Of a stretch of DNA of 64,000 bases, positions 10,487-61,437 are shown one piece after another. The stretch comes from an uncultured Clostridia bacterium. Lineage in GTDB: Bacteria > Bacillota > Clostridia > Oscillospirales > Ruminococcaceae. The number at the start of each line of letters is the position of its first letter. The stretch's first letter is position 1. The position numbers and the translations under genes were made by a program. The stretch spans positions 1-64,000 of the forward strand of contig CANRJB010000014.1 in assembly GCA_947630845.1 (NCBI GenBank), read 5' to 3'. A model generated the notes under the pieces. That model was given only the letters and a program-made list of their open reading frames with translations, did no database searches and was not told the origin of the DNA.

Positions 10487-12121
10487 ATGAAATCCAAACA
10501 ATTCACAGCTGCTGCACTTGCTGCCGTGATATCGCTGACAAGTGCTATTCAGGGCTATGCCATGCGGTCGGCAGCTGAGGAAACTGAAGCACAGCCATCA
10601 GTTTCCAGAAACGGCATGAACATCGAGGAAACAAATTCCTTCGGCAAAATGTTCACATCTGAGCCGAATACCAATCAGGCAGAACAGCTCGAAAACAATG
10701 GCTGCAACATCCTCTCCGCCGGAACGGCAGAGGTCATGCAGGACGAACAGGAGACAACTGTCACCCCTTCTGCGGATTCAGATACTCCACCTGAAACCAG
10801 CGAACCTTCTACAGAACCTGACCCACCGGCACAGTTGAGAGTGGCTTCGGTCAGTCTTGGAGATGAACATAATGCTGCCATCACTACAGACGGCAGTCTG
10901 TATACTTGGGGAAGTAATAATTATGGTCAGCTCGGAGACGGCACAGCCACAAACAGATCTACTCCTGTGAAAATCATGGACAATGTGGCTTCGGTCAGTC
11001 TTGAGGGGGTTCATAGTGCCGCCATCACCACAGACGGCAGTCTGTATACTTGGGGAGCTAACGGGCTTGGTCGGCTTGGAGACGGAACAAACACAAACAG
11101 GTCTGCTCCTGTGAAAATCATGGACAATGTGGCTTCGGTCAGTCTTGGAGATTATCATAGTGCCGCCATCACCACAGATGGCAGTCTGTATACTTGGGGA
11201 AATAATTATAGTGGTCAGCTTGGAGACGGTACAACTACAAACCGATCTACTCCTGTGAAAATCATGGACAATGTGGTTGCAGTCAGCCTTGGGAGCAGTC
11301 ATAGTGCTGCCATCACCACAGACGACAGTCTGTATACTTGGGGAAGTAATTATTATCATCAGATCGGAGACGGCACAAACACAGACAGGCATTCTCCTGT
11401 GAAAATCATGGACAATGTGGCTTCGGTCAGTCTTGGAGCTTTTCACAGTGCTGTCATCACCACAGACGGCAGTCTGTATACTTGGGGAGATAATAGTGAT
11501 GGTCAGCTCGGAGACGGTACAACTACAGACAGATATACTCCTGTGAAAATCATGGATAACGTGGCTTCGGTCAGTCTTGGGAATTATTATGGTGCCGTCA
11601 TCACTACAGATGGCAGTCTGTATATGTGGGGAAATAATTATTTTGGTCAGCTTGGAAACGGCGAGAGTGGAAAGGATGAAAATGGAGAATATTTAAAAAA
11701 TACAGTTCCCATTAAAATCATTGACAATGTAGCTTCTGTCGCTCTTGGATGGATGCATAGTGCCGCCATCACCACAGATGGCAGTCTGTATACTTGGGGA
11801 GATAATTATAACGGTCGGCTTGGAGACGGCACAACAGAAAATAAAGCAGTACCGACAAAAATAGAAATTCCCACAGAGGACACCAATCTTGGCGATGTCA
11901 ATGGGGACGGTGTGATAGATACTTCCGATGCTGCCGCCATCCTCGTGGAAATTGCATCCCTTGGTGCAGGCAATGCTGCGTCCTTCACTGATGCACAGCT
12001 CACCGCCGCCGACATTAACCAGAGTGGTGCGCTGGAAACCTCTGATGCTGCCGCCATCCTCTCCTACACTGCCGCCCTTGGCGCAGGGAATGAAGATGTG
12101 AAGCTGGAAGATTTTGGATAA
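10487..12121 (+). CDS. Secreted RCC1-repeat beta-propeller protein with dockerin
   Basis: A 544-residue secreted protein. A signal peptide (MKSKQFTAAALAAVISLTSA) is followed by a Thr/Pro/Glu-rich stretch (about 50-118), then seven near-identical 45-55-residue RCC1 repeats (about 120-465) of the type SVSLGDYHSAAITTDGSLYT...WGNN..GQLGDGT. Seven repeats make one closed seven-bladed propeller. A type I dockerin-like pair ends the protein: GDVNGDGVIDTSDAAAIL and ADINQSGALETSDAAAIL, each followed by GAG. RCC1 propellers bind proteins and are not catalytic, so a surface adhesion or assembly role is likely. It does not share an operon with its neighbours. AAAGGAGG precedes the ATG. Confidence 0.88.
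   Translation: MKSKQFTAAALAAVISLTSAIQGYAMRSAAEETEAQPSVSRNGMNIEETNSFGKMFTSEPNTNQAEQLENNGCNILSAGTAEVMQDEQETTVTPSADSDTPPETSEPSTEPDPPAQLRVASVSLGDEHNAAITTDGSLYTWGSNNYGQLGDGTATNRSTPVKIMDNVASVSLEGVHSAAITTDGSLYTWGANGLGRLGDGTNTNRSAPVKIMDNVASVSLGDYHSAAITTDGSLYTWGNNYSGQLGDGTTTNRSTPVKIMDNVVAVSLGSSHSAAITTDDSLYTWGSNYYHQIGDGTNTDRHSPVKIMDNVASVSLGAFHSAVITTDGSLYTWGDNSDGQLGDGTTTDRYTPVKIMDNVASVSLGNYYGAVITTDGSLYMWGNNYFGQLGNGESGKDENGEYLKNTVPIKIIDNVASVALGWMHSAAITTDGSLYTWGDNYNGRLGDGTTENKAVPTKIEIPTEDTNLGDVNGDGVIDTSDAAAILVEIASLGAGNAASFTDAQLTAADINQSGALETSDAAAILSYTAALGAGNEDVKLEDFG
10847..11860 (+). repeat. Seven tandem DNA repeats coding for RCC1 blades
   Basis: Blocks of about 147 bp repeat with high nucleotide identity (for example GACGGCAGTCTGTATACTTG and GTGAAAATCATGGACAATGT recur). 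The identity at DNA level suggests recent duplication or gene conversion within the gene; the sixth-to-seventh interval is longer because of an insertion with ESGKDENGEYLKN. Confidence 0.85.
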
Positions 12122-12134
12122 TTACAGAAAGAAA

Positions 12135-12163
12135 GCGGTGTTCCGGACGGAATGCCGTTTTTC
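12135..12163 (+). terminator. Intrinsic terminator after the RCC1 gene
   Basis: GCGGTGTTCC / GGAATGCCGT pairs with G-U wobbles around a GGAC-type loop and is followed by TTTTT. Confidence 0.65.
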
Positions 12164-12232
12164 CTTAGCTCAAAAAAGAGTTATCATATAGGTGCAGACA
12201 TACAGTAGATCTGAAAAAAGCAATAGTGAGTA

Positions 12233-12330: not shown

Positions 12331-15300
12331 ATGAAAAAAACGAAAAAACTTTCCGGCAGACTTATCGCATTGTTTTCGTCTGTTCTGATGACCTTCTTTT
12401 GTCTTAGAATGTATCAGCCGCTGTATGCTGATGCAGCAAGCAAAACAATCTGTATTCCCTACGGCTTCAATACTTTTTTGTCCGTGAGTGATGACGGCGA
12501 AGTATCGGGCTATTATGCTGAATACCTTGAAGAACTTGCTGATATCAACAACTGGAAATACGAATACATCAATGCAACATGGACAGAGGCAGTCGAAATG
12601 CTCGAAAGCGGAGAGATTGACTTCCTTTTCCCCACAAACTACAGCGAGGAACGAGACGAAACAATGGATTTTTCATCTATTCCGATCGGATATACGTCTG
12701 TCGGTATATTCGCACTTCAGAGCAGTGACTACAACTACGAGGATTTTGATTCATTCAATGGGGCAAGGGTAGCCTGTGCAGAAAACTCCACAAATGCTGA
12801 GGAATTTGATATATATGCCAAAGATCACGGATTTTCCTATGATTTGATTCCCTGTAAGACAAATGATGAAATGATCGAGGCAGTCGAAAACGGCGATGCC
12901 GATCTTGCTGTATTCAGTGCAGCAAATGAGTTTCCCGGCTCTAAACTCGTTGCCACATTCAGTTCTGCCCCCGTCTTTTTCACTGTAAAAGAAGGGAATA
13001 CAGAGCTGCTCTCCGAAATAGACAGCGGTATGCAGGAGATCATCAGGGAAAATATTGATCTTGTTTCTGAAACGCTGAAAAAAACACTTGTCGGAAATAA
13101 CGGCAATGTCAGCGCATTCACTTCCGAAGAAAAAACCATTGTGGATTCCGGCAAAGAAATTATTGTCGGATTTTATGAGCAAAGCGAACCGCTTGCCTAT
13201 GTTGATGACGATGGTAATTACAAGGGAATTTATATTGATTTTCTGAAATATATTATGGAAGAATCCGGAGTAAACCTCGTTCCATATCCGATAACCCGCA
13301 ATATCAAATGGCAGGATCTGGTAAAAAACGGCGATATTGATTTTTACATAGGCTCATCCGATACTATTGCATTTCAGAACGATGAAGTCTGCGCAACGAA
13401 GTCGTTTATGGAGTATTCCATTTTCCTTGTAATGAAGAGAGACAAAACGCTCAGCAGCATCAAAAAGCCTGTTATCTCAATGACCTACGCACGTACAAGC
13501 TGGGCAGAATATCTCGAAGAACAGTTCGGAAAGGAGCTTGAATTCAAATACTATAACACCCCCAAAGAATGTATGTTTTCCGTGGCAAAAGGCGAATCGG
13601 ATGCTGCGCTTATCAGTAACCTTGAATACAACTATCACATGAAGAATCAGCACTTTTCCAACCTTGTCTATTCGATGCAGTACCGCTATCCGACAAAGAT
13701 CACTATGGCAGCTTCTTCTGACATTGACCCGAATACCCTCTCTCTTGTGAATAAGATGATCACGATTGCCGATCCGGACTATATTGACGAAATAACCGAC
13801 AGTGCTCTTATGCTTCCGTATCATTCCTATTCGTTCGGTGATTATCTGTACAATTACCGTTTCACGATACTGACGATCGGCACTATGCTGGTAATCGTAG
13901 TTGCTTTCACATTATTCTACAGAAACAAGATGAAACTGAAAGAGGAGACAAGACAAAAGGAAGAAAAGATGCTCAGGATACTTGCCGCACTCAGCAGCGA
14001 CTATTCTGCTATCTACTTTACCGATCTCGACACGAATCACTGCAATGTCATACGATTCCCGGAGAACGGTGCAAATGCTGTATTCCAGAAGGACAAGCAT
14101 TCAGAAGCAATGGAGGTGTACATGAATTACAGTATATCTCCGGAATATCATGATGTGATACGTCCATACTGCGACCCCAAAAATATAATTGAAAGATTTA
14201 AGAAAGAAAAGGCTTTCTATATCCGTTATCAGGTACTGCCATCAAGCAAAAATACAAAATATTATGAGATGTGTTTCGTAAATGTCAGCGAGGACGAAAG
14301 TCATAAAATGGTTTTCGGCATACGCTGTATAGATGAGCTTGTCAAGGCTGAACAGAAACAACATCAGATGCTTGAAGATGCTCTGAAGAGTGCAAACCGT
14401 GCAAATACCGCAAAATCCGACTTCCTGTCAATGATGTCCCATGATATAAGAACGCCTATGAACGCTATCATCGGCATGACCGCCATTGCCTCGGCTCATG
14501 CGGATGAACCAGACTGCGTGCGTGATGCTCTGGGCAAAATTGCAAGCTCAAGTCAGTATCTGCTCAGTCTGATAAATGATGTTCTCGATATGAGCAAGAT
14601 AGAATCGGGCAAATTCAAGCTGACACAGGAGAATTTTGACCTCAGTGTACTCCTGAATGAGCTTATTGAGATGATAAAACCGCAGATAGAAAAGCATAAC
14701 CACAAACTTACCGTTGATATAGCAAACATCAAACATAAAGAAGTGATCGGTGACAAGCTCAGGTTACAGCAGATATTCATGAATCTGATGAGCAATGCGA
14801 TCAAGTATACTCCGGACGGCGGAAATATCTGGTTCACCGTAAATGAAAGAAATATCCGCAACAAAGCATCTGCGTGCTTTGAATTTGTATTCAGGGACAG
14901 CGGTATCGGAATGTCAGAGGAACTTATGGAACACGTCTTTGAACCCTTTGTCCGTGCCGAAGATCTGCGTATCAGCAAAACACAGGGTACGGGTCTGGGA
15001 TTGCCTATCACGAGAAATATCATCCAGATGATGAACGGAACAATAGAGGTAAAAAGTGAATTGAAAAAGGGCTCGGAATTTCTCGTTACGATTTTCCTGA
15101 TGAGACAGGAAATTTCAAAGAGCAGCGACACTTCCGAAAATACTAACGATGTGAACAAGATACGCAAAAGAGATTACAGCGGCAAGCGTATCCTGCTTGT
15201 GGAGGACAACGACCTGAACCGTGAGATTGCAAAAGAAATTCTTGAAATGTCGGGACTTACTGTTGAGGAAGCCGAGGACGGACAGATCGCCTTTGATAAA

Positions 15301-15555
15301 TTTTCGGAGTCGGATGACGGCTATTATAACATGATCTTCATGGATATTCAGATGCCGAATCTGAACGGATATGATGCAACACGGGCGATACGCAATCTGA
15401 AATCCACATATGCCGAAGAAATACCAATCGTTGCCATGACCGCAAATGCGTTTGTTGAGGACATCAAGGCATCGGAAGCAGCAGGAATGAATGCGCATCT
15501 TTCAAAGCCTATCGATTTTGGAAAGCTGGATCAGATACTGGAAAAATACCTGTAA
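12331..15555 (+). CDS. Hybrid histidine kinase with two solute-binding (SBP_bac_3) domains
   Basis: A 1074-residue BvgS-like sensor. After a signal/anchor helix come two periplasmic family-3 solute-binding domains (about 36-255 and 265-500), the second with GFYEQSEPLAYVDDDGNYKG. A membrane helix lies near 510-530, then a PAS-like segment, HisKA with SMMSHDIRTPMNAIIG (His about 702), an ATPase with DSGIGMSEELMEHVFEPF and GTGLGLPI, and a receiver domain with ILLVEDNDLNREIA and phosphoacceptor Asp near 1003 in FMDIQMPN. Two-domain sensors of this type bind amino acids or similar small molecules. No output domain and no partner regulator or Hpt protein is encoded nearby, so the output is unknown. 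Confidence 0.92.
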   Translation: MKKTKKLSGRLIALFSSVLMTFFCLRMYQPLYADAASKTICIPYGFNTFLSVSDDGEVSGYYAEYLEELADINNWKYEYINATWTEAVEMLESGEIDFLFPTNYSEERDETMDFSSIPIGYTSVGIFALQSSDYNYEDFDSFNGARVACAENSTNAEEFDIYAKDHGFSYDLIPCKTNDEMIEAVENGDADLAVFSAANEFPGSKLVATFSSAPVFFTVKEGNTELLSEIDSGMQEIIRENIDLVSETLKKTLVGNNGNVSAFTSEEKTIVDSGKEIIVGFYEQSEPLAYVDDDGNYKGIYIDFLKYIMEESGVNLVPYPITRNIKWQDLVKNGDIDFYIGSSDTIAFQNDEVCATKSFMEYSIFLVMKRDKTLSSIKKPVISMTYARTSWAEYLEEQFGKELEFKYYNTPKECMFSVAKGESDAALISNLEYNYHMKNQHFSNLVYSMQYRYPTKITMAASSDIDPNTLSLVNKMITIADPDYIDEITDSALMLPYHSYSFGDYLYNYRFTILTIGTMLVIVVAFTLFYRNKMKLKEETRQKEEKMLRILAALSSDYSAIYFTDLDTNHCNVIRFPENGANAVFQKDKHSEAMEVYMNYSISPEYHDVIRPYCDPKNIIERFKKEKAFYIRYQVLPSSKNTKYYEMCFVNVSEDESHKMVFGIRCIDELVKAEQKQHQMLEDALKSANRANTAKSDFLSMMSHDIRTPMNAIIGMTAIASAHADEPDCVRDALGKIASSSQYLLSLINDVLDMSKIESGKFKLTQENFDLSVLLNELIEMIKPQIEKHNHKLTVDIANIKHKEVIGDKLRLQQIFMNLMSNAIKYTPDGGNIWFTVNERNIRNKASACFEFVFRDSGIGMSEELMEHVFEPFVRAEDLRISKTQGTGLGLPITRNIIQMMNGTIEVKSELKKGSEFLVTIFLMRQEISKSSDTSENTNDVNKIRKRDYSGKRILLVEDNDLNREIAKEILEMSGLTVEEAEDGQIAFDKFSESDDGYYNMIFMDIQMPNLNGYDATRAIRNLKSTYAEEIPIVAMTANAFVEDIKASEAAGMNAHLSKPIDFGKLDQILEKYL

Positions 15556-15946: not shown

Positions 15947-15963
15947 CTTCTTTCTTAAATATT

Positions 15964-18900
15964 TTATTTACTTGCATAAGCCTTAGCAGCAATATAGTAG
16001 TTATAGAGATTAGACACCAGATTCTTGAGATTTTGATCTGCTGTAGCATCATTCATAACCGTGTAAACATAGCTCATGGGGCTGTAGCTGATTGTGTAAT
16101 CTCCAATCATTTCACTGACCGGTACACCGAGGTCATCCGCTTTGATACCATCGCTTTGTCTATAGTAGAAACCTTCATTGGATTTAGATTCTGTCAGACC
16201 AAAGCTTTTTGCGGTTTCTGCATCAGTTTTGAAGTAGTGACGGATATAAGTATCGGAATCCAGTATCAGGCTTGAACCGATATAGCTTACATTCCCTTCA
16301 AGCGTATCCTCGCCAGATGCTTCCGGTTTATAGTCATTAAGAGCTTCAACTTTCACTTGCTTATCATCAGAAAGATCATCAACCTTGCCGCCCTCCTTGA
16401 AGAACTGTTTTGCAGCCTCACCGTAGTTGAGCATTTCCGTGACAACATCTTTGGCTTTGACAAATTTCTCAGCATCCTGTGAGCCAGTATTTTCATCGTC
16501 AGCTTTTTTCAGAATCGAGTCAGCATAATCAGCTACTGCATAATGATATCTTGTACCAACCTTATCAGATGAATGCACACGGAATGTAATTTCTGAATGG
16601 ATATCCTTTGCAGGTATCTGTGCCGTAAACTTATACAGGATACGCTCGGTGTTTCCTTCAGAGATTGTTACTTTGTTTTGTTCAGAGATTTTTACTTCCT
16701 GCAGATGATTTTCACCCGCTTCACCCGGCAGATTAAATTCAACGTAAGTATTCTTATCCGATACAACGGAATTATCAAGATCAAGATAAACATTCAGCAA
16801 GATATTGCCATCCAGTCCAATGTTAGCCATTTCAAAGGAGCTAATGCCATCTTTCTTGACACCGCATAAATCACCGTTAGCTGTCTTATCCATGCATTTA
16901 CCATTTTCAAGGTTGAAGTGATGTGTGGAGATCGACGGCTTGATGACTTCTGCATTCTCTTTTTTCTCTACTTCATAGACACTCTCTGCCATGAAGGTTG
17001 CTTCAACAATAGATGCTTCATGTTCATTGATGTCATCATAGGGCAGTTCAATGACTGTTCCATTTCTGTCATTATCGTCAATCTCATAGGAAACGCCGCC
17101 AATTGTTACAGTGTCAATTACAAAACCTTTTTTCGGCTCAATAGTGATTTCTGCCTTCTCGCCCTTATAAAGCGTAACTGTGCCGCTCATAGTTTTACTT
17201 TCTTTATTGTCTGCTGAAATTTGACTTTCTTCTTTCTCTGCCGAAATTGTACCGTTTGTTACAGATGGGAGAATTATGGTTCTTTTCTCGTTTTCTGCTT
17301 CGATTTCTTCTCTCAGTTCAGCGTCAGGGATTTCATCAATGTCAACCGGAACAATGGCAAACGGGCTGAACGAATCGCACCATACAACCAGACCATATTC
17401 TGTAATTTCACAAGGAATCTCATTGACACCTGTGATATTTCCTTTCTCATCCTTTGAAAAATGGTAAACCTTGAAAGTCTTGCCTGCATCATCCGGACCA
17501 TAGCCAGCCGGGAAACCGAGTGTCACACGGACTGCCTGACCTGTGCTTACGATCTGTGATTTGCAGAGTGTGAGGTTGATATTGTAGTACTCTGCATTCT
17601 CAAAATCAGCAGCATTACCCATTTTTTTAACATCAGGTTCATCCCCCATCATTTCCAACATATCCTCTTTCTGTTCGGGGTTTGCATCTGTAGCAACAAG
17701 AACCATTCTGTGTGTAAGATCTTTGAGAGCCTCGTTCAAATCAGCAAATCCATCTGTCATATCGCTTGTATCGCCATTCAACGTTGCTTTGCTGAAATCA
17801 AAACCGCTGAGGTCATCCATAAGAGTGGGCTTACCGAATACGTTCCAATCGTAACCCTGTGACTGGAAAGCATGTGCTGCACATCTGTGAGCTGCGAGGA
17901 AGCTGATAGCGATTGGTTCTTTGCCCGATACCGTATATACTTCATCTTGCTTTGTGGATGAATCTTTTGCCGCTACTGTTGTAGAAACATCTTTTCCTCT
18001 AAGACCTTTCACATCAAATTCATAGAAGATATTGTCATCAGCATACATTATACTTGGTGTGAAGTCGAACTGATAGCCGATAACAGATTTATCACCTGCA
18101 TTTTCAAGAACTGTTGCCAAATCAAATGATTCTTCTGTATTGTTAATAGCTTTAACGTCATGAACAGTTACCTTTGCTTCATCATCTTTTGTTATAAGCT
18201 GAAGTTCTGCATTTACAGGGCTGCTTACAGAACCATCTTCAAATACAAGTCTGAAGTTGTCTACACAGCTGTTATCAAAACCAGATCTGTTAGAAAGGTT
18301 ATGCATATCCTGAATATTCATTCTAAGGGATATTTTGTTGCCGTTTCCTGTTACATAGTCGCTGTCCATAAAGAGATACTGGTCAAATTTTGCGTTTATT
18401 GTCTGTGCGCCATCATCAATCAGTAATGCACTCTGAAGAGATGGTGTAACTTCTTTCGGATAGGGAGGAGCTTTATAGAAACCGTTAGCATTGTAAATGG
18501 CATCACTTGTTGCAGCGTAGTCTGAAGAAGTACCATAATAAACAGTATCTTCAAAAGCCTCAGAACTATAAGTTTGCATAGGAATTCTTGTAACTGCAAA
18601 CTTCACATAGGGAACTTGCGGAAGTTCTAATACAAGATGCTCATCAGTAGTATAGAAAGCCTGTCTGCCTGCTTCTATTGCTTCTGCATCAGTTTTAAAG
18701 TAAGGACAAATCCAATCAGCCGGATTTCCTTTTCCACCCTGATCCATATCAGCATTAGCACCCATATATACCATTCCGGTCCAGCCATAGTCGCCAATTT
18801 CAGCTTTTGCTACTTTTTCTTCATAACCGGGTTCATTTTTTCCAGCACTGAAGCTCTTTGATGTTATTGTACCACTTCTGTCTGTGAGGCTGTCATACAT

Positions 18901-20070: not shown

Positions 20071-20102
20071 AACGATCACCTCGTGCCATATATTATGATA
20101 TT

Positions 20103-49330: not shown

Positions 49331-50326
49331 CTATTTTGTGATGTATTCTTCAATCGTAACATTTTCACCAGCACCGACTGCTGAGATGTACTGGAGTAGG
49401 AGAGCAGCATCACCTGTGTCCAGATCGCCGCCGTTGAGGTTAGCGGCAGACTTCTGTGCATCCGAGAAGGACGGCTGTATGCCTGCTCCGATTCTGGCAA
49501 TCTCTATCAGAATATTGGCGGCATCGCTCGTGTCAATTTGTCTGTCACCATTCACATCACCGAGAACAATATCCGTTATATTCGGAGTGGTTTCAGGTGT
49601 GGTCGTAGTAGTTTCAGGTGCAGTATATGTAGTCGTAGTAGTTTCAGGTGTAGTAGTTGTGGTCGTAGTGGTTTCAGGTGTAGTAGTTGTGGTCGTAGTG
49701 GTTTCAGGTGTGGTAGTGGTAGTCGTGGTGGTTTCGGGTGTGGTAGTGGTGGTCGTGGTGGTTTCGGGTGCAGGGGTGGTTTCTGAAAATTCCCTTGCTG
49801 CGATAAAAACCTGTGTGCAGTAATATCTGTTATTTGCGTAGGATACGCCAATGCCGACATAATTATAATTGGCATTCAGGATGTTACTCTTTGTGGCATC
49901 CTGCCCCATAAAGTAATTCATTGCCTGTTCCGGAATCGTACAGCCATAGACATAATTTTCCGAAGTTCTGCTGTAGGAAATGCCAAATTCGCTTAATACG
50001 GTACTTGCGGCACTGCCGTCAGGTCTTCTGTAATCGGCAGATTGAGTCAGTTCATCGCTGCGCTTCTGGGCAGCATTTGTCAGTGCCGGCATTTCTTTCA
50101 GTTCAGAAAGTCCGTTTGCGACACGTTGTTGATTGAGCAGTGTAAACACCTCACGTGCAAAGGTTTCTGTGTCCATTGTCTGCTCCATGCTGATTGCCGG
50201 AAGTGTTTCCGTATTCAGTGTATAAGCCCTTGCTGCAAAATCCGATTGCTGTGTTTTCTGCAAGCTGATGCCAAGTGTCAGGACAGATGCTGTAAGCAAG
50301 GCTGTGCATGCCATCCATTGTTTCAT
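49331..50326 (-). CDS. Secreted CAP-domain protein with dockerin, degenerate active site
   Basis: A 331-residue exported protein. Signal peptide (1-25), CAP/SCP domain (about 53-180) with NQQRVANGLSEL and SNILNANYNYVGIGV, a PETTTTTTTT repeat linker (about 184-245), and a dockerin: GDVNGDRQIDTSDAANIL then NLNGGDLDTGDAALLL, each ending near GAG. The CAP tetrad is altered: the His of the usual SHxRPDG is Tyr99 and the His of GHRxNIL is Thr145, while Glu123 remains. A binding rather than catalytic role is likely. The dockerin type matches those of the RCC1 and papain-fold proteins. Confidence 0.88.
   Translation of the reverse strand: MKQWMACTALLTASVLTLGISLQKTQQSDFAARAYTLNTETLPAISMEQTMDTETFAREVFTLLNQQRVANGLSELKEMPALTNAAQKRSDELTQSADYRRPDGSAASTVLSEFGISYSRTSENYVYGCTIPEQAMNYFMGQDATKSNILNANYNYVGIGVSYANNRYYCTQVFIAAREFSETTPAPETTTTTTTTPETTTTTTTTPETTTTTTTTPETTTTTTTTPETTTTTYTAPETTTTTPETTPNITDIVLGDVNGDRQIDTSDAANILIEIARIGAGIQPSFSDAQKSAANLNGGDLDTGDAALLLQYISAVGAGENVTIEEYITK
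49590..49775 (-). repeat. Tandem repeats coding for the Pro-Thr linker
   Basis: Units of about 33 bp encode PETTTTTTTT five times or more, with ACCACTACGACC-like cores. Likely to vary in copy number between strains. Confidence 0.8.
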
Positions 50327-52501: not shown

Positions 52502-52549
52502 AGAAGCATAATGTTTTGCTCGTCATCAAAGACAATAAGGAGGAATTTT

Positions 52550-55489
52550 ATGCGACCTAAACGACTTCTCAGTACATTGCTTGCCTGTGTACTGGCAGTG
52601 ACCGGAATGAGCATTCCGGGAAAATCAGCAGCTGCTGAACCGGAATGGAAATTCGACCTCGGCGACGGCGGAGCAGCATCCGGATTTACGGGTGTCAGTG
52701 CAGCGGTCGGTTACAATGCCGCAGTTGGCTATGGCTTTTCGGACACATCCGGTGTTAAGGATGTGGCAGCTTCTGGCAGCGGTTCATGGAGCGATGCCGT
52801 GCAGTTCACATCTGACAAAACGACTTTCAATGTCGATTTGCCAAAGGGGCTTTATCAGGTTTCTGTTGCGACCGGCGATGTCAGCCGTACCAGCATCAAG
52901 GCAGAAGGGATGCTGCAACTCATCAATCTGACCGGAAACAATGCCTACGACAGCTTCCAGCTCCCCGTTACGGACGGACAGCTCAACATTCAGGCAGTTG
53001 CAGGACGAAATAATACCCCGTTTTCTATCAGCGCAATTGAGATCAAACAGCTCAATACCACAGGCGAAACCAACCCCACTATCTGGCTCTGCGGCGATTC
53101 CACGGTTGCCAACTACTACAATACCCCCGACACTGCACAGCATGGTTGGGGACAACTCCTCGGAAATTATCTCACCGGCACATCAGCAGAGGGCTATCAG
53201 GTACGCAACATGGCAGCAAGTGGTCAGTATGCAAAGGGCTTTGTGGATGCCGGACAATTCGATGCCATTGAAACCTATGGTAAAACCGGCGACTACTATG
53301 TCATTGCCATCGGCATCAACGACACCAACTATTCCAATGCCGATGAGTACACCGCCGTTGTGACAGACATGGTACAGCGTGCTGAAGCGAAAGGCATGGA
53401 GGTCATCCTCGTCAAACAGCAGGGTCGCAGAAGTGACCTCAATCGCAGTCCGCTCCTTGGCGGCAGATGGTTCGGCGGGCAGCTTGATGCCATTGGTGCG
53501 GCAGAAAATGTGAAGGTCGTTGATCTGTTCACACCGTGGCAGGAATTCGGGCTTTCTGTCGGTTTTGACGGCATGGCAGAATATTATGCCACAGATGATG
53601 ACCTGCACCAGAGCAAGGCAGGCTCGACCAAGCTTGCCGAGATCATGGCAGGACTTCTGTTCAGCGGAAGTCAGGGCACTTCACAAGGAGATGTTCTGGA
53701 GGATGTTCCGGAGATGTTCATGCTCCGAAACGGCTATACCAACCAGTATCTTTCCCTTGAAGCAGCATCGGCGGACGGCACAAACGTTTCACAGCAGGCA
53801 GCTCCCGGCATCGACAGCAAGGCTGCACTCTGGATGGCAGTTCCGGCAGAGGACAATTATTACTACCTTGTCAGTGCAGCCGATGAGACAAAACGCCTCG
53901 ATGTCTATGAAGCCAATGCTGCAAACGGCACAAACATTGGCATCTGGTCGGATACCGGTTCTGATGCACAGCTCTTCCATTTCCTGAAGCAGGAGGATGG
54001 CAGCTACATTATTGCAACCAAAGTTTCCGATGACAAGAGTGCTGTTGAGGTCAAGAATGCCTCTCTTGACAGCGGTATGAACATTCAGGAATGGGAACGC
54101 AATGGTCATGCATGTCAGACATGGTTCATTGACAATACAGTACTGTCTCAGCCGGATATTGTGCAGGGTGACCTGAATCAGGATGGCGTGGTGAATGTAT
54201 TGGATCTCGCACTTCTGAAGAAGGAGATCGCAGGCGGCACTCCGGGTCACACAGTACGGAGAGCATCTGACCTGAACGGAGATGTTGCCATAGATACGGC
54301 AGATGCGAAGCTGATGCAGAATTTCCTGCATGGAACGGGACATATCCAGAGTGCCGCAGAGGGCAAGAGCGTTTACTATGCAGTGGATCAGGCATTCAGC
54401 AAGGGCGTGACCGAGAGCAGCAATGCTGGCTTTACCTCTGATGCCTATGTGAATCTTGACAACAATACTGTCAGCTTCATTGAATTTCGTGTCAATGTGC
54501 CGAAAGACGGCAATTATCTCTGTACCTTCAACATTGCCAATGGCAGTACATCCAACCGACAGATGAAAATTGAGGTGGAGGGCAATACGGATTACTGGAT
54601 GCAGGACTTCCTCTCCACAGAGGCATGGACAACATGGATGGAGCGTGCCATTGTTCTTCCGCTGAAAACAGGCAGCAATCTCATTCGCCTGACATCAGCA
54701 ACAGCAGAAGGCGGACCGAATATCGACTATCTGCGCACGGAATGGACAGATGAACCGATCGCAGAGCCGTATCTTCCGCCGACAGAACCTGATCCGCCTG
54801 TTCCGGAAGGTAAGACTACCATTTATATTGCAGGTGATTCCACCGTGCAGTCCTACCGGGCAAGTTTTGCACCGCAGCAGGGGTGGGGGTATTACCTCGG
54901 GGACTATTTCACAGAGAATGTTGAAGTCTCCAACCATGCCATTGCCGGACGCAGTTCCAAGAGCTTCTATGACAACAACAGATTGCAGACGATTCTCGAT
55001 GCCATCCAACCGGGCGACTATCTGCTTGTACAGTTTGCCATCAACGATTCAGCAAGCGGCAATGCAGAACGTTATGCGCCGGTTTGCGGTAATGCAGAAA
55101 ATCCGACAGAGGGTTCGTATGAATGGTACATGTCTAAGTACATTCAGGGTGCAATTGACAAAGGTGCAACTCCCGTTCTTGTAACAACTGTCATCGGTCT
55201 GAAAGCATACTCCGGCGGCAAGTTTGTCAATAGCTACACCAACTACTGTGATGCCTGCAAGAGCCTTGCGGCAAAATACAAGATCCCCTGCATAGACCTG
55301 AACACGCTGATGGTCGATCACTACAACAGCATCGGCTATGATGCTGCCTACCAATACCATCTTTGCAGTGCGGTCGAGGGTTCTTCCGATATGACCCACT
55401 TCACTGAAACGGGAGCAAATGCAGTTGCCGGGCTTGTGGCAAATGCCATCAAGAAACTGGGACTTCCCATTTCCGCAGAGGTAAAATAG
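52550..55489 (+). CDS. Two-domain rhamnogalacturonan acetylesterase (CE12) with dockerin
   Basis: A 979-residue secreted enzyme. Order: signal peptide (1-29), beta domain (about 30-165), CE12 SGNH esterase with WLCGDSTVANYY (Ser near 181), IGIND and DDLH; ricin-like CBM13 (about 388-532); type I dockerin (537-598: GDLNQDGVVNVLDLALLKK and DLNGDVAIDTADAKLM); CBM35-like domain (607-737); second CE12 with IAGDSTVQSY, FAIND and SDMTH. Both triads are intact. It removes acetyl groups from pectin backbone so that lyases can act. AAGGAGG precedes ATG 52550. Confidence 0.92.
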   Translation: MRPKRLLSTLLACVLAVTGMSIPGKSAAAEPEWKFDLGDGGAASGFTGVSAAVGYNAAVGYGFSDTSGVKDVAASGSGSWSDAVQFTSDKTTFNVDLPKGLYQVSVATGDVSRTSIKAEGMLQLINLTGNNAYDSFQLPVTDGQLNIQAVAGRNNTPFSISAIEIKQLNTTGETNPTIWLCGDSTVANYYNTPDTAQHGWGQLLGNYLTGTSAEGYQVRNMAASGQYAKGFVDAGQFDAIETYGKTGDYYVIAIGINDTNYSNADEYTAVVTDMVQRAEAKGMEVILVKQQGRRSDLNRSPLLGGRWFGGQLDAIGAAENVKVVDLFTPWQEFGLSVGFDGMAEYYATDDDLHQSKAGSTKLAEIMAGLLFSGSQGTSQGDVLEDVPEMFMLRNGYTNQYLSLEAASADGTNVSQQAAPGIDSKAALWMAVPAEDNYYYLVSAADETKRLDVYEANAANGTNIGIWSDTGSDAQLFHFLKQEDGSYIIATKVSDDKSAVEVKNASLDSGMNIQEWERNGHACQTWFIDNTVLSQPDIVQGDLNQDGVVNVLDLALLKKEIAGGTPGHTVRRASDLNGDVAIDTADAKLMQNFLHGTGHIQSAAEGKSVYYAVDQAFSKGVTESSNAGFTSDAYVNLDNNTVSFIEFRVNVPKDGNYLCTFNIANGSTSNRQMKIEVEGNTDYWMQDFLSTEAWTTWMERAIVLPLKTGSNLIRLTSATAEGGPNIDYLRTEWTDEPIAEPYLPPTEPDPPVPEGKTTIYIAGDSTVQSYRASFAPQQGWGYYLGDYFTENVEVSNHAIAGRSSKSFYDNNRLQTILDAIQPGDYLLVQFAINDSASGNAERYAPVCGNAENPTEGSYEWYMSKYIQGAIDKGATPVLVTTVIGLKAYSGGKFVNSYTNYCDACKSLAAKYKIPCIDLNTLMVDHYNSIGYDAAYQYHLCSAVEGSSDMTHFTETGANAVAGLVANAIKKLGLPISAEVK

Positions 55490-55527: not shown

Positions 55528-56301
55528 TCATGCATGTCTGGGCTTGAGGTGAGGCAGGAAGTTCACCAACGGCAATCCTGCCCTCGCTGACATAGTCTCA
55601 CAGTCGGAGACTGCGGAACGGTCATCAAGAAGGGACGGTGTATGGGCATCACAGCCAATGATTGCCCTGCATCCTTCATTTGCGGCGATCTGTAGAAAGC
55701 ATGGATCAGTGTAATGCCGCTGCTCCGCAACACCGTGCAGATTGATCTCGACCGGCACATCATGCTCTGCGAGCCATTTGCACAGTCTTGCATACTGTGT
55801 CTGATAAGCAGCACCCCTGAAACCCATCAGGTCAGGGTGTGCAGCATAGACAAAGCGTCCCGTTTCCAAGCCTTCGATCAGATGATCTACATAAGCTTCA
55901 AGCAGCTTTTCATCATCGGTAATAATGCCAACATATTCCCCATACGGTTCACGCTCCAGATAGTGCTGTCCGAGGATATGATAATCGACCGGATAATCTG
56001 CTAAGAGCCTGTCCTGAGCTTCCATCAGCTCCGGCAGATATTCCGTTTCAAAACCGATATAAATGGTAATGTCCTTTTTGTATTCATCCCGAAGCTTTGT
56101 CAGGGAAGTAAAATAATCGTCCACCTGACGCAATGACATGCGGATCGGCGACTCATATCCATCCGGAAAAACAAACGGGCAGTGATCCGAAAATCCAAGC
56201 ACCTGCATTCCATGCCGGATCGCATTTTCAATATAAGCTCTGTCCTCTCCGTTAGCGTGACCGCAGCGGTAGGTATGGGTGTGATAATTTGCAAGAATCA
56301 T
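55528..56301 (-). CDS. PHP-family histidinol-phosphatase (HisJ/HisK type)
   Basis: A 257-residue PHP metallo-phosphatase. It begins NYHTHTYRCGHANGEDRAYI and has LGFSDHCPF, YIGFETEYLPE, ILGQHYLE, VYAAHPDLMGF, EINLHGV and IIGCDAHTP, giving the full set of metal ligands. The usual reaction is histidinol phosphate hydrolysis, but other PHP substrates exist. Its ATG overlaps the stop of the papain-fold gene by 4 bp, so it is translated from that transcript, an unexpected pairing. No other his gene is in the window. Confidence 0.85.
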   Translation of the reverse strand: MILANYHTHTYRCGHANGEDRAYIENAIRHGMQVLGFSDHCPFVFPDGYESPIRMSLRQVDDYFTSLTKLRDEYKKDITIYIGFETEYLPELMEAQDRLLADYPVDYHILGQHYLEREPYGEYVGIITDDEKLLEAYVDHLIEGLETGRFVYAAHPDLMGFRGAAYQTQYARLCKWLAEHDVPVEINLHGVAEQRHYTDPCFLQIAANEGCRAIIGCDAHTPSLLDDRSAVSDCETMSARAGLPLVNFLPHLKPRHA

Positions 56302-58400
56302 CCGCCAGCCCCCTGTTCTGCGATCATGACCAGAATATCAGCTGCATCGCCTGTGTCTATCGTACCGCTTTTGTTGATATCGGCACGCTGCAAAAAGCCA
56401 TCATCCACATCCAGCTTTTCGCCTGCACCGATCTTTGCGATGTAGACCAGAATGTCCGCAGCATCTGCCGTATCCATCATACCATCCAGATTGATATCCC
56501 CGATCACAGCCGTACCGGATGTCAGAGTGTAGGATGTGTTCTCCAGACCATCCTGTGTAACTGTCAGCTGTTCAGGTGCAGTGACCTCAGTCATTTTTCC
56601 GGAGGGAAGTAAAACATCCCCACAAGTCACAGTGCCGGATGAAATAGGCATGAGCGCAGTCGTCCCCTCCGGAATGATGACAGAGTTGTCATTGATCTGT
56701 GCATATGCACATCCGTCTGCCGTTTTGCAGAGCAGACTGGAGAGAGATGCTTTCTGTACCGTATAGGTCTGTGTGTAGACCAGATGATCTCCTGTATCTG
56801 CATAGGCACTGATGGTCATTTCCTCTGTGATCGGAATGGGATCAGAGTAGGGAGTGAATGAGCTGCCGTTGACGGAATACAGGATATCTGCCCCTTCACA
56901 GGTATCCAGTGTGATGAGTGTACCGGCAGGGACAGCATGGTGATAATCAGAGAAGGTGACAGTTCCTGCATCTTTGGTCACTGCCTTCAGGCAGAGGTTG
57001 CCTTCCCGTTCGGTAGTGACAGAGGAGGTTTCCCCTTCAGCGATCTCCGTATTGACCGTCTCACGGCTGAACATATCCGTCCATGCCGTTCCGTCCGCAC
57101 TGACAAAGCTCTCGTCTGCATTGAAATCCCGGAGCAGCATATCCATCGTAAAGATGCTGTCAGCATAATCAGTCGAGCCGTCAGCGTTTACCCACTCCGT
57201 GTGGGAGGCATATTCACAGGGTATGAGATACCCCTGCACACTGGAGAAATGCACTACGATGGAAAACGGTTTGTCCTGTGTAATGGGAACGGGCTCATCC
57301 AATGTTATGGTCTGATAACCGGTCAGGTGCAGTGTAGTCTCTGTCAGACCGAAAGGCGTTCCCGAAGTCGGATCGGCAGCATCGGTCAGATCCGTATAGA
57401 CAGAGACAGAAATATCGGTATCTGCCTGCATGTTGCAGAGCATGATGTCCGTCACCCATCCATTCCGTTCGGCGGTAAAGACATTGGCAGCATAGACAGA
57501 GCTGTCCCCACCTTCCTGCAAAGCAAGTGCGCCGGAGTTTCCGTAGTCGTCATGTTGATAGAGCCGCATATCTGGTTCAGCAGGCTTGGCATCAAATGCG
57601 GTAATATCCGTCAGCGTCCCGTCGGCATAAGAGATCCAGAAGTAACCATATTCTCCGGAGGACAGTCCTCTGCTGTCCTTGACGAGCCATGCGCCGTCTG
57701 TTCCTGGGTCGGAAACAAAATTCTCCGCAGGGAAATTGTCATCCCATCCCACAATGCTGACTGCATGACTGACCGTCTGCGCACCGGCAGCAGTGTCGTA
57801 GTCAAAGAAATACGCATATTTCTCTGCATTCAGGCAAGGGGCACAGTCGGCATACCGGGCATCAAGTGCATGTCCGTCGTAGATCGACTCTTTGATCTCC
57901 TGCATCATATCAGCATTGCCGCATTGATAGGAATAGGTATATGCATCAGTTACACGATAGTCTGACTGCAACCGGACATCATCCAGCGTATAGGAAGTTT
58001 CCGTTACTGACATATCCCCATAGGGGCAGTCGCTTTCACTGACCGCACCGACCCATCCGATCAGCAGTCCGGTTTCCTGCCGGACATCATAACTCCCTTC
58101 GTCAAAAATGGAGACAGAACCGGCAGGATAGCCGAATGTCCCACAGTAAGTGTGATACGCAAGCTGCCATTCGGAAAGATCAATTTCCGGTTCGGCAGCG
58201 ATCTGTCCAGTTTCAATGGCATTCATCGCTGCAAAAGCCCATCCAGTCTCATAATCTCCCTGATCTTTGACTGCGCTGACAAGCCCTTTACTACGCAGAT
58301 CAAAGCTTTCCGGAAGCTGGATGGTGTCCGCTGCTGCGGATAATGGCAGAATGGGCAGCATTGCAAGACTGACAATGACTGCCAATACTCTCTTTTTCAT
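56298..58400 (-). CDS. Secreted papain-fold (C1) protein with dockerin, catalytic residues lost
   Basis: A 700-residue exported protein with signal peptide MKKRVLAVIVSLAMLPILPL. The C1A domain (about 30-260) has KDQGDYETGWAFAA: the catalytic Cys position is Gly53 (codon 58242-58244). The His is kept (His212 in SHAVSIVGWDD) but the Asn is Asp242 in WLVKDSRG, where WLVKNSWG is usual. A lectin-like domain (about 280-430) and a chitobiase-like segment follow, then a dockerin with GDINLDGMMDTADAADIL and ADINKSGTIDTGDAADIL. It is therefore probably a non-catalytic protein. The dockerin type equals those of the RCC1 and CAP proteins. Confidence 0.9.
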   Translation of the reverse strand: MKKRVLAVIVSLAMLPILPLSAAADTIQLPESFDLRSKGLVSAVKDQGDYETGWAFAAMNAIETGQIAAEPEIDLSEWQLAYHTYCGTFGYPAGSVSIFDEGSYDVRQETGLLIGWVGAVSESDCPYGDMSVTETSYTLDDVRLQSDYRVTDAYTYSYQCGNADMMQEIKESIYDGHALDARYADCAPCLNAEKYAYFFDYDTAAGAQTVSHAVSIVGWDDNFPAENFVSDPGTDGAWLVKDSRGLSSGEYGYFWISYADGTLTDITAFDAKPAEPDMRLYQHDDYGNSGALALQEGGDSSVYAANVFTAERNGWVTDIMLCNMQADTDISVSVYTDLTDAADPTSGTPFGLTETTLHLTGYQTITLDEPVPITQDKPFSIVVHFSSVQGYLIPCEYASHTEWVNADGSTDYADSIFTMDMLLRDFNADESFVSADGTAWTDMFSRETVNTEIAEGETSSVTTEREGNLCLKAVTKDAGTVTFSDYHHAVPAGTLITLDTCEGADILYSVNGSSFTPYSDPIPITEEMTISAYADTGDHLVYTQTYTVQKASLSSLLCKTADGCAYAQINDNSVIIPEGTTALMPISSGTVTCGDVLLPSGKMTEVTAPEQLTVTQDGLENTSYTLTSGTAVIGDINLDGMMDTADAADILVYIAKIGAGEKLDVDDGFLQRADINKSGTIDTGDAADILVMIAEQGAGG

Positions 58401-58749: not shown

Positions 58750-61437
58750 ATGAACATGAAGAAAAGAATCAGAAATATGCTGTCTGCTCTCACAGCATGT
58801 GCAACACTTTGTACATCCCTTGCCTTTCCTGTGCCGCAGTCTGCGGCAGCGGAGGGTATGATCGCTTTCCCGGGTGCTGTCGGCGGCGGCAGGTATGCAA
58901 CAGGCGGCAGAGGCGGAGAAGTTTACCACGTCACCAATCTTAATGACAGCGGTGAAGGCTCGTTCCGGGATGCCGTCAGCAAATCAAACCGTATCGTTGT
59001 GTTTGATGTCAGCGGCACGATCGAACTGAAGAGCAACATCCTCTGCCAAAGCAACATCACCATTGCCGGACAGACTGCTCCCGGCGGTTCGGGTATCACC
59101 TTGAAAAACTACAAGCTCGGCATGGCAGGCGACAACATCATCTGCCGCTTTCTCAGCTCCCGTCCCGGACCCTATGCCTCCACCAGCTCCGGCAACGATG
59201 CATGGGGCGGTGCAAAAGGCTCAAATTCCATCATTGACCACTGCTCCATGGGCTTCACGACCGATGAACAGTGGGGACTGTATTCTAATAACCAGTACTA
59301 CACTGTGCAGTATTCCGTCATCGGACCTGCGGATTCGTGGGGCGGTCACAGCAAGGGAGTACATGGATTCGGACTGATGATGGGAAAGGGTTATCTGACC
59401 TTTGACCACAATCTCATTATCCACAATGTTTCCCGTAACTTCCGGGGCAAGATGGAAGGACAGCAGACTGCTGATTTTACCAACAATGTCATCTACAACT
59501 GGGCATACCAGACTGCTTATGGCACGATCGGTCATCTGAATTATGTCAACAATACTCTCAAAATGGGAAACGGTACGACCGGCGGCAAACATTATGTCAA
59601 TGTGGACAGCAGCACCAAACCCGAAAATTTTAAAATTTACATTGCCGGCAACCGTATGCTCAATCAGGACGGCACTGTGTACGATGCCGTTACTGGCGAT
59701 AATTGGAACGGTATCACTGTCAAGGACGGCATTGGCATTACCAAAAATGACCTTGTGAGCAATACTGCCTTTGAGACACTTGTCAATGGGCAGAATGTCT
59801 CTACTGCCATGACCTGTGAGAGTGCAGAGAATTCCTATGAGCATGTTGTCACCTATGCCGGCAACGGAATTTCGCCTACACAGCGCACTACCATTGACCA
59901 GCAATGTGCAGAAGAAACACGTACCGGTACAGGCTATCACTCCGGAACAGCTTCCTATGATGCTGCCAATGACAGCGAAAAGGCAAACATTGATAAGTAC
60001 CACATCCAGTGCGGCGTGACCTACAGCTACCCCGACCCCGTCCTTACCAAAACCATCACTGATGCTGACAATGATGGTATGGATGATGAATGGGAGGAGC
60101 TGCGTGGACTTGACCCGTCCGACCCGACCGATACCAACGGTGACTACTGCGGACTGGGCTATACCAATATTGAATACTATATCAATGATCTCACTGTCAA
60201 TGCCTTCCCGGAGGGTGTGGTCACACTGTCTCCGGAAACGGGTACACCTCTGCCGGTGACCTCCGCATTTTCGCAGATTGAAGCAGAAAGTTTCACTGAA
60301 CAGGAAGGTGTCCGGACAGAGGACACCACGGACGACAATGGTGTGCAGAATATCGGCTTTGTGGAGAACGGTGATTATGTGATGTACAAGCGCATTGACT
60401 TTGAGGAAGGCGCAAGGAGTTTTACCATGCGTATATCCGGCAATGCATGTACAATGGAGCTGTATCTTGATAGTCTGAACACACCGGTCGCATCTGTACC
60501 ATTTGCAGGAACATCGGGATTTTCTGACTGGCAGACTATCAGCATGAATATCCCTGCGATCACGGGAACGCACAATCTGTATATAAAATTTATGGGCGGC
60601 GAAGGCTACCTGATGAATGTCAACTGGTTTACCTTCGGCAAAGAAACCCTGCCTCTCAATGGTGTACTCGTCAAGCAACTGACGGTCAAAGATGAAGAGC
60701 GTCTGACTGGCTGGACACTCGGACAGAATGCAGCTGTCGGTTCAGCAATTTTCGGGGACAGAGACTTTACCTTTACCACAATGCCGGATACCCTTGCCGG
60801 AGCAGAGCAGATCCTGACGGCATGCGACTCCAAGAATGCGGAAGGAGACTGTGCTGTCTTTACCGCAGGTGCAGATGCTGTGGTGTATATTGCACTGGAC
60901 GATCGTGTGGAGAATGTGCCGGAATGGATGGCGGAGTATACCAAAACCGAAATGACTCTTACAAGCTCCAATGATGTGGTGTTCGATGTATACAGCAGGT
61001 CTGTGAAAGAAGGCGAGGAAGTCACACTGGGTGCAAACGGACAGTCCTATCTGTGCGTGAACTATGCCGTCCTTGTCAAGGAGCAGGAGGAAACTCCCAC
61101 TGAACCTGAAAGCACAGAGCCTGTAACCGAAACCACTGAACCCGAATCGCAGCCTGAAGCCACAGAAACGTCGCAGGAAACGGATACTGAGCCTGCATCC
61201 ACCACATCTGTCCCGACAGAGACTACAGGTACAGCAGAACTGTACGGAGACGTAGATGAAGACGGGAAGGTGCAGATGGTTGATATGATCTTACTAAACA
61301 AATACCTGATGATCGGCACAGAAATTTCTCCACAGGGGCTGCTCAATGCTGATGTCAATCAGAACGGTGAGGTCATGCAGGATGATGCACTGAACATTCT
61401 GCGTGCGGTTATAAAATTGGTGACACTGCCGCTCTGA
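58750..61437 (+). CDS. Pectate lyase (PL1 type) with CBM and dockerin
   Basis: An 895-residue secreted enzyme. After the signal peptide (1-35) comes a parallel beta-helix lyase (about 36-440) with AFPGAVGGGRYATGGRGG, TNLNDSGEGSFRDAV, SIIDHCSMGF and SWGGHSKGVHG; a Ca-binding-like DADNDGMDDEWEELRGLDP; a CBM6-like domain (about 505-632, QIEAESFTEQEGV); a beta domain; a Thr/Glu-rich linker; and a dockerin (GDVDEDGKVQMVDMILLNKY and DVNQNGEVMQDDALNIL). It cleaves pectin backbone and would be carried on a cellulosome. AAAGGA precedes the start; ATG 58756 is an alternative. Confidence 0.9.
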   Translation: MNMKKRIRNMLSALTACATLCTSLAFPVPQSAAAEGMIAFPGAVGGGRYATGGRGGEVYHVTNLNDSGEGSFRDAVSKSNRIVVFDVSGTIELKSNILCQSNITIAGQTAPGGSGITLKNYKLGMAGDNIICRFLSSRPGPYASTSSGNDAWGGAKGSNSIIDHCSMGFTTDEQWGLYSNNQYYTVQYSVIGPADSWGGHSKGVHGFGLMMGKGYLTFDHNLIIHNVSRNFRGKMEGQQTADFTNNVIYNWAYQTAYGTIGHLNYVNNTLKMGNGTTGGKHYVNVDSSTKPENFKIYIAGNRMLNQDGTVYDAVTGDNWNGITVKDGIGITKNDLVSNTAFETLVNGQNVSTAMTCESAENSYEHVVTYAGNGISPTQRTTIDQQCAEETRTGTGYHSGTASYDAANDSEKANIDKYHIQCGVTYSYPDPVLTKTITDADNDGMDDEWEELRGLDPSDPTDTNGDYCGLGYTNIEYYINDLTVNAFPEGVVTLSPETGTPLPVTSAFSQIEAESFTEQEGVRTEDTTDDNGVQNIGFVENGDYVMYKRIDFEEGARSFTMRISGNACTMELYLDSLNTPVASVPFAGTSGFSDWQTISMNIPAITGTHNLYIKFMGGEGYLMNVNWFTFGKETLPLNGVLVKQLTVKDEERLTGWTLGQNAAVGSAIFGDRDFTFTTMPDTLAGAEQILTACDSKNAEGDCAVFTAGADAVVYIALDDRVENVPEWMAEYTKTEMTLTSSNDVVFDVYSRSVKEGEEVTLGANGQSYLCVNYAVLVKEQEETPTEPESTEPVTETTEPESQPEATETSQETDTEPASTTSVPTETTGTAELYGDVDEDGKVQMVDMILLNKYLMIGTEISPQGLLNADVNQNGEVMQDDALNILRAVIKLVTLPL

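What the first reader, a model, noticed from the sequence alone, without database searches (positions are those of the whole stretch)
10487..61437. Two dockerin classes: a GAG-type dockerin on non-catalytic proteins, ordinary dockerins on pectin enzymes
The RCC1, CAP and papain-fold proteins end in closely related repeats (DxxDAAxIL followed by GAG), while the CE12 esterase and pectate lyase carry different, standard type I repeats. The first group appears non-catalytic: RCC1 is a binding fold, and the CAP and papain folds lack key residues. This suggests a second cohesin partner and a surface complex made of binding modules.
Basis: partly seen in the sequence, partly recalled or inferred. Interest (0 to 1): 0.7.

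Follow-up and report, generated by a model that had tools for sequence, protein, structure and literature searches.

The report
Surface-anchoring dockerins on non-carbohydrase proteins
A Ruminococcus-like bacterium uses one family of molecular plugs for a set of surface proteins and different families for its plant-digesting enzymes; the first family matches the known cell-wall-anchoring plugs of Ruminococcus flavefaciens, so it extends a known design and is not a new one.

Summary
The three GAG-type dockerins in the window (RCC1, CAP, papain-fold proteins) are real and belong to a distinct class. In the window's own genome (2.03 Mb, 91.8% complete) I classified 70 dockerins: the deepest split is 20 GAG-type against 50 others, which divide again into 22 and 28. 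So there are three classes; the CE12 esterase and the putative pectate lyase sit in two different ones. GAG proteins show Pfam GH/PL domains in 0 of 20, the rest in 28 of 49 scanned. 'Non-catalytic' is too strong: the window's papain and CAP proteins lost key residues, but paralogues look intact. The partner is very probably a ScaE-type cohesin: the GAG profile best matches the ScaH dockerin of PDB 8ajy, whose partner chain is the ScaE-like wall anchor, and this genome has a sortase-anchored ScaE homologue beside an X-module gene with a GAG dockerin. The main scaffoldin's own dockerin is GAG-type too. This corresponds to R. flavefaciens FD-1 group 4, which others showed to bind ScaE. Binding was not tested here. 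Verdict: new member of a known kind, with a changed recognition dyad.

The parts
10487..12121 (+). RCC1-repeat protein with C-terminal GAG-type dockerin (dockerin 11888-12115)
   Evidence: ORF; Pfam RCC1/WD40_RLD and Dockerin_1; GAG profile E 1.2e-32
49331..50326 (-). CAP-domain protein, Thr-rich linker, GAG-type dockerin (dockerin 49340-49564)
   Evidence: ORF; Pfam CAP E 2.1e-11, dockerin below the Pfam cut-off; GAG profile E 2.7e-32; not in the PF00404 list at E<=0.001
56298..58400 (-). Papain-fold pseudo-peptidase + Lectin_like + GAG-type dockerin (dockerin 56301-56504)
   Evidence: ORF; Pfam Peptidase_C1, Lectin_like; Cys to Gly, Asn to Asp; GAG profile E 3.7e-28
52511..55489 (+). CE12-like double GDSL esterase with an internal dockerin of the KK class, halves in reversed order (dockerin 54167-54328)
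   Evidence: ORF; Pfam Lipase_GDSL_2, AGA-YXIM_GBD, RicinB, weak CBM_6; cluster 4 at k=5, part of the 28-member cluster at k=3
58750..61437 (+). Putative pectate lyase with CBM6/CBM35 and a QMVDM-class dockerin (dockerin 61243-61404)
   Evidence: ORF; Pfam CBM_6, CBM_35_2, Dockerin_1, no lyase family; 22-member cluster

Best explanation
The GAG-type dockerin is this species' version of the ScaE-binding, surface-anchoring dockerin (group 4 of R. flavefaciens FD-1; by a review's account, group 1 of R. champanellensis). Its symmetrical two repeats plug proteins into ScaE-type cohesins. One such cohesin (contig C6, 95789-96754) has a sortase signal and would be linked to the cell wall. Similar cohesins occur on a predicted lipoprotein (C2) and on an adaptor with an enzyme-class dockerin (C5). 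The class carries the main scaffoldin, an X-module protein next to ScaE, and 18 other proteins on which no plant-polysaccharide hydrolase domain was found: CAP, RCC1, LRR, papain, amidase, transglutaminase and others, five of them without any family. Enzymes use two other dockerin classes that, by analogy with FD-1, join the scaffoldins. Shown here: the classes, parent domains, ScaE homology and gene adjacency. Inferred: the binding, the localisation and the roles of the displayed proteins.
For: 70 own dockerins split first into 20 GAG and 50 others. The GAG profile's best PDB match is 8ajy_B, 'Dockerin from ScaH', E 1.2e-13; a group-2 dockerin, 9gvb_B, is also matched, E 1.8e-4. A profile of 19 ScaE homologues best matches 2zf9_A 'ScaE cell-surface anchored scaffoldin' (E 2.3e-10) and also 8ajy_A (E 1.7e-7), the chain paired with that dockerin. 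A GAG-family dockerin ORF (E<=1e-4) lies directly upstream on the same strand in 15 of these 19 loci, own genome included. The multi-cohesin scaffoldin ends in a GAG dockerin, which argues for a partner outside its own cohesins. Internal symmetry: median z 8.4 against 3.9 and 2.6 in the other classes. 0 of 20 GAG proteins have Pfam GH/PL domains against 28 of 49 others, Fisher p 4.4e-6. In a second genome, 42 GAG-type proteins gave no GH, PL or CE among 12 Pfam families at E<=1e-5. FD-1 group 4 dockerins bind ScaE in published assays (PMC5301203, passages), and group 4a has 2 glycoside hydrolases among 40 members (PMC2930009, Table 2).
Against: No binding was tested. The Gly-Arg recognition dyad of the FD-1 group 4 dockerins that were mutated is absent: own members have Thr-x in 16 of 18 first and 16 of 18 second repeats (18 of the 20 aligned over both repeats). 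The own ScaE alone matched no cohesin in the PDB and PF00963 did not list it; only the 19-member profile links it. The CttA chain 4iu2_B is matched only at E 0.3. In FD-1 most dockerins from LRR proteins bound no tested cohesin (PMC5301203), and LRR parents are common in this class in the second genome (22 of 42). In a family sample, 3 of 14 genomes with GAG hits had no ScaE-type hit, one of them (G124) with 21 GAG hits.
Confidence: 0.82

Rival explanations
1. One reading: the GAG dockerin marks a surface complex built only of non-catalytic binding modules.
For: The window papain and CAP proteins have lost key residues; RCC1 and LRR parents are binding folds; a pseudo-papain type (ET[SG]WAF ... 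KD) recurs in L054, L055, L057, L068 and L070.
Against: Intact-looking papain (L048), beta-lactamase-like, amidase_3 and transglutaminase proteins carry GAG dockerins in the same genome; 24 of 28 papain-GAG ORFs in loci from other genomes keep Cys/His/Asn; one GAG protein of G020 has an Endonuclease_1 domain.
Confidence: 0.08
2. GAG dockerins are received mainly by a membrane-anchored (lipoprotein) ScaE-type cohesin or by the adaptor with an enzyme-class dockerin, and wall-linked ScaE is reserved for the X-module dockerins. (This overlaps with the best explanation: the cohesin type is the same, the carrier differs.)
For: The own genome has a ScaE-type cohesin on a predicted lipoprotein, C2:95611-96198, E 3.3e-24, found in the same nadB-nadC-cohesin gene order in two relatives (gene names by eye), and an adaptor C5:109335-110753, E 1.3e-12. 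Own X-module dockerins have insertions that simple GAG dockerins lack.
Against: Published FD-1 group 4 dockerins without an X module also bind ScaE (PMC5301203, passages).
Confidence: 0.25
3. GAG and enzyme dockerins bind the same scaffoldin cohesins; the sequence classes only reflect ancestry.
For: No binding data exist for this species; cohesins of broad specificity are known (recalled, from no call).
Against: Deepest split in the clustering; the scaffoldin's own dockerin is in the GAG class; in FD-1 the equivalent groups bind different cohesins (passages).
Confidence: 0.06
4. Many GAG repeats are degenerate calcium-binding ornaments that bind no cohesin.
For: One member has a single repeat (C6:99334-101130) and the C17 and C18 members have odd spacing; most LRR-protein dockerins of FD-1 bound no tested cohesin.
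Against: Conservation of both repeats and of the dyad in most members.
Confidence: 0.07

Closest known systems
R. flavefaciens FD-1 group 4a dockerins (ScaB, CttA, ScaF, ScaH, ScaI, peptidase-Doc), bound by ScaE
   Same: Symmetrical repeats; best profile match to the ScaH dockerin; parents include a scaffoldin, an X-module protein, LRR, peptidase, transglutaminase and unknown proteins, with few or no carbohydrases; a sortase-anchored ScaE homologue is present.
   Different: Recognition dyad Thr-x in place of Gly-Arg; RCC1, CAP, amidase and beta-lactamase-like parents here (a search of the paper library for 'dockerin' with 'RCC1' listed one paper, not on Ruminococcus by its title and abstract start).
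R. champanellensis group 1 dockerins (as described in review PMC8865330, passages)
   Same: Group 1 anchors to ScaE, group 2 holds mainly cellulases, groups 3 and 4 mostly hemicellulases: the same kind of division as GAG / QMVDM / KK here.
   Different: No sequence comparison was made.
R. flavefaciens group 2 dockerins (one repeat identified, bind ScaE and ScaH)
   Same: 9gvb_B is matched by the GAG profile (E 1.8e-4); one own member has a single C-terminal repeat.
   Different: The other own GAG dockerins have two repeats.
Type I-like dockerins of FD-1 groups 3 and 6 (bind ScaC)
   Same: Own KK class carries hemicellulases, esterases, PL11, a serpin and LRR; a subset has its halves in reversed order.
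   Different: This is the class of the CE12 esterase, not of the GAG proteins; equivalence is by parent content, not tested by sequence.

Membership tests
ScaE-binding group 4 dockerin | Two calcium-binding repeats with internal sequence symmetry | tested here: met
   Self-alignment of halves, median z 8.4 (19 GAG members) against 3.9 (KK, 26) and 2.6 (QMVDM, 21)
ScaE-binding group 4 dockerin | Sequence similarity to known ScaE-binding dockerins | tested here: met
   8ajy_B ScaH dockerin E 1.2e-13, next best 1.4e-5; CttA chain 4iu2_B only E 0.3
ScaE-binding group 4 dockerin | Gly-Arg recognition dyad | tested here: not met
   Thr-x in 16 of 18 first and 16 of 18 second repeats; Ala-Ser in G020 (39 and 37 of 42). 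The FD-1 paper says several, not all, group 4 dockerins have Gly-Arg, so I do not take it as strictly defining
ScaE-binding group 4 dockerin | Scaffoldin and X-module protein carry the same dockerin class | tested here: met
   C15 scaffoldin and C6:93045 protein fall in the GAG cluster; the X modules were recognised by eye
ScaE-binding group 4 dockerin | Binding to ScaE cohesin | not testable with these tools
   Needs purified proteins; structure prediction was not accepted
ScaE anchoring scaffoldin | Signal peptide, one cohesin, linker, sortase signal | tested here: met
   322 aa, signal peptide and SPETG plus hydrophobic tail by eye, 19 homologues aligned; profile matches 2zf9_A ScaE E 2.3e-10, though the single sequence matched nothing relevant and the Gram_pos_anchor match was weak (E 0.06)
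   Intact papain L048; amidase, beta-lactamase-like and transglutaminase motifs intact by eye

The most novel reading that the evidence does not exclude
Across this genus the GAG dockerins form a second display system, free of plant-polysaccharide enzymes, with one lock and several mounts: the same ScaE-type cohesin on the wall (sortase), on the membrane (lipoprotein in a nadB-nadC gene order) and on an adaptor that hooks into the cellulosome. The recognition dyad drifts as a set within each genome (Gly-Arg in FD-1, Ala-Ser in G020, Thr-x here), so each species keeps a private key. Pseudo-proteases are kept as ligand-binding cargo.
Probability: 0.35. Interest if true: 0.55.

Novelty: new member of a known kind. 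Interest (0 to 1): 0.3.

Why it matters
It says that in a ruminococcal cellulosome producer the surface-anchoring dockerin class serves a whole set of non-carbohydrase proteins, and it names the probable receptor gene for each mount. It makes specificity testable with three cohesins and three dockerin classes from one genome. It also shows that Pfam's dockerin model at E<=0.001 misses 8 of 20 members of this class in this genome, so dockerin counts made with that model may be low.

Tried and rejected
Considered and rejected: (a) two classes only; clustering gives three. (b) A non-catalytic class; see intact-looking paralogues. (c) Finding the anchor with Pfam cohesin alone; PF00963 listed the ScaC-like and the multi-cohesin scaffoldin and the C5 lipoprotein, but not ScaE or the ScaA-like protein. 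The sortase-signal search gave only a weak lead to ScaE (E 0.06), and the single ScaE sequence matched no cohesin in the PDB. (d) I first took the C5:66088 lipoprotein for ScaE or a misassembly; it is a separate conserved protein. (e) Phylogenetic co-occurrence: 11 of 14 GAG genomes and 0 of 104 others have a hit of the ScaE cohesin profile (Fisher p 3.8e-13). This is weak evidence for pairing, since whole cellulosomes come and go together, relatives are not independent, and some of the 11 hits are cohesins of other scaffoldins. (f) The dead papain as a class feature: only the window copy and five loci of relatives.

Choices and dropped rows: the nine A1 dockerins were picked by eye. The Coh-GAG protein C4:12995 (weak) is not among the 20 or the 70. 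One dockerin fragment (C7:20312, 42 aa) was not scanned with Pfam, so 49 of 50 non-GAG proteins were. GAG proteins were scanned at E<=0.01 to 0.1 and 47 of the 49 others that I scanned outside the window at E<=1e-6 except the ScaA-like one (0.05), so the comparison does not favour the others. GAG fragments were cut by A1 hits and the others by PF00404 hits, a small asymmetry. A3 holds 19 of the 30 loci fetched, chosen for a full-length ORF with a sorting signal; L112 and L123, which also have one, were left out. The G020 tally used 42 proteins from regions around 37 of its 70 hits, the ones that one search listed, plus neighbours; some are cut by contig ends. The rotated-profile test used 5 of 10 loci whose split points my pattern found.

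Led nowhere: alignment too variable; script errors or time limit, redone; paper searches, nothing relevant by title and abstract start.

Full report
What the window is. The window is contig C14 of a 2.03 Mb genome in 43 contigs, 91.8% complete. Close relatives of the papain protein come largely from Ruminococcus and Oscillospiraceae MAGs, some with ruminant hosts in their titles. Five dockerin genes were found in the window: RCC1, CAP and papain proteins with GAG-type dockerins, a CE12-like esterase and a putative pectate lyase.

The classes. Pfam PF00404 lists 62 dockerin hits in the genome at E<=0.001. A profile of nine GAG dockerins, picked by eye (A1), adds eight more genes, including the window's CAP protein and the main scaffoldin. 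I compared 70 dockerins by local alignment and average linkage, without bootstrap. At two clusters the split is 20 GAG against 50. At three it is 20, 22 ('QMVDM', with the putative pectate lyase) and 28 ('KK', with the CE12 esterase). The CE12 dockerin belongs to a five-member subset with its halves in reversed order. A figure legend in PMC5301203 compares FD-1 group 3 and 6 dockerins through a half-switched version (passages).

Who carries what. I scanned 69 of the 70 parents with Pfam. QMVDM, 15 of 22 with GH or PL: GH9, GH48, GH5, GH26, GH10, pectate lyase; also the ScaA- and ScaC-like scaffoldins, so named here by position and modules. KK, 13 of 27 scanned with GH or PL: GH5, GH10, GH11, GH25, GH30, GH43, GH44, pectate lyase, PL11; also a serpin, LRR, C39 peptidase and transglutaminase. 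GAG, 0 of 20 with GH or PL: three CAP (one with LRR), one LRR alone, two RCC1, two papain+lectin, one beta-lactamase-like, one GDSL, one transglutaminase and one amidase (both with choline-binding repeats), one PPC, two X-module proteins (one being the scaffoldin), and five without a family besides the dockerin. Fisher p is 4.4e-6, or 1.1e-5 if GDSL/esterases are counted, 1 of 20 against 30 of 49. In a second genome, G020 (one contig has the length of a contig of isolate RUI441), 42 GAG-type proteins gave 22 with LRR_5, 2 CAP, 2 cohesin, 1 endonuclease and no GH, PL or CE among 12 families.

Catalytic or not. The window papain has Gly for Cys and Asp for Asn; its own-genome paralogue L048 keeps Cys, His and Asn. 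In loci fetched, 28 ORFs join a papain fold to a GAG dockerin at E<=1e-3: 24 keep Cys/His/Asn and 4 do not (L054, L055, L057, L068); L070 is a fifth dead copy without a dockerin match. So a pseudo-papain type recurs, but the class is not non-catalytic. The window CAP lacks two His that L015 has, and the GDSL protein L041 has Asp where the block-I Ser is expected (both by eye).

The partner. The GAG profile against the PDB gives 8ajy_B, 'Dockerin from ScaH', at 1.2e-13, next best 1.4e-5, and also the FD-1 group-2 dockerin 9gvb_B. The other chain in both entries is 'Cell-wall anchoring protein'. In this genome, C6:95789-96754 encodes a 322-residue protein with signal peptide, a cohesin-like region, a Thr-rich linker and an SPETG sorting signal, directly after an X-module gene with a GAG dockerin. 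A search with it rings in 32 of 38 genus genomes, but some of those matches cover only the linker and sorting tail. An alignment of 19 homologues (A3) matches 2zf9_A 'ScaE' at 2.3e-10 and 8ajy_A at 1.7e-7. The own sequence alone does not. In 15 of the 19 loci a GAG-family dockerin ORF lies directly upstream on the same strand; of the other four, one locus has little upstream sequence. Other ScaE-type cohesins in this genome: a predicted lipoprotein (C2:95611-96198, E 3.3e-24), an adaptor with a QMVDM dockerin (C5:109335-110753), a weak Coh-GAG protein (C4:12995) and one cohesin of the main scaffoldin. That scaffoldin has four cohesins seen by Pfam and two further N-terminal repeats that look like cohesins by eye.

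Literature. PMC2930009 (parts 1-3 of 5 read): FD-1 group 4a has 40 members, internal symmetry, two GH proteins, many LRR and unknown, a few peptidases, and cohesin proteins. PMC5301203 (passages): group 4 dockerins bind ScaE, with a dual-binding mode; most dockerins from LRR proteins bound no tested cohesin. PMC3573020 (part 1 of 4): an X-dockerin protein with NlpC/P60 modules. PMC4081043 (passages): overview of six strains. PMC8865330 (passages): R. champanellensis group 1 anchors to ScaE. Other papers were seen only in search listings. The arrangement here is therefore known in kind.

What differs. The dyad at the recognition site is Thr-x in this genome (16 of 18 in each repeat) and Ala-Ser in G020 (39 and 37 of 42). 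In 29 dockerins of papain loci from other genomes, 27 first repeats begin with Ala and the second residue varies. FD-1 members that were mutated have Gly-Arg. Parents here include RCC1, CAP and amidase proteins.

Limits. No binding, no structure prediction, a draft MAG, and classes defined from sequence only. In 118 family genomes, 14 have GAG hits and 11 have hits of the ScaE cohesin profile, all 11 within the 14; three GAG genomes have none.

Noticed in passing
L018:9792-10661:- (own contig C5:66088-66960): Predicted lipoprotein (lipobox by eye) whose cohesin-like domain looks circularly permuted: Pfam cohesin positions 69-139 (weak, E 0.1) come before 2-59 (E 7e-6). It has relatives in 31 of 38 genus genomes and the same order in 10 of 10 loci read, own included; a rotated profile of 5 fits one scaffoldin cohesin nearly end to end, the natural order bridges two neighbouring cohesins. 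A paper search for cohesin, dockerin and 'circular permutation' listed three papers, none on this by title and abstract start.
   Followed up: partly
L037 (own C2:95611-96198): ScaE-type cohesin on a predicted lipoprotein directly after nadC; the same nadB-nadC-cohesin order, followed by a metG-like gene, in L146 and L147 (nad and metG names by eye).
   Followed up: partly
L019:11336-12751:+ (own C5:109335-110753): Adaptor: ScaE-type cohesin plus enzyme-class (QMVDM) dockerin, which would bring GAG proteins into the enzyme complex.
   Followed up: partly
window 56298-58400; L054, L055, L057, L068, L070: Recurrent pseudo-papain type with ET[SG]WAF in place of the Cys motif and KD in place of KN.
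   Followed up: partly
own genome: PF00404 at E<=0.001 misses 8 of 20 GAG-type dockerin genes.
   Followed up: yes
L041:6908-8638:-: GAG-dockerin GDSL-fold protein with Asp where the block-I Ser is expected, possibly another pseudo-enzyme (residue read by eye).
   Followed up: no
window 15964-20079 -: Large transglutaminase-like protein (1369 aa scanned) in which Pfam found no dockerin at E<=0.1.
   Followed up: no
window 12331-15555 +: Hybrid sensor kinase with solute-binding-like sensor regions beside the RCC1-dockerin gene (read by eye).
   Followed up: no
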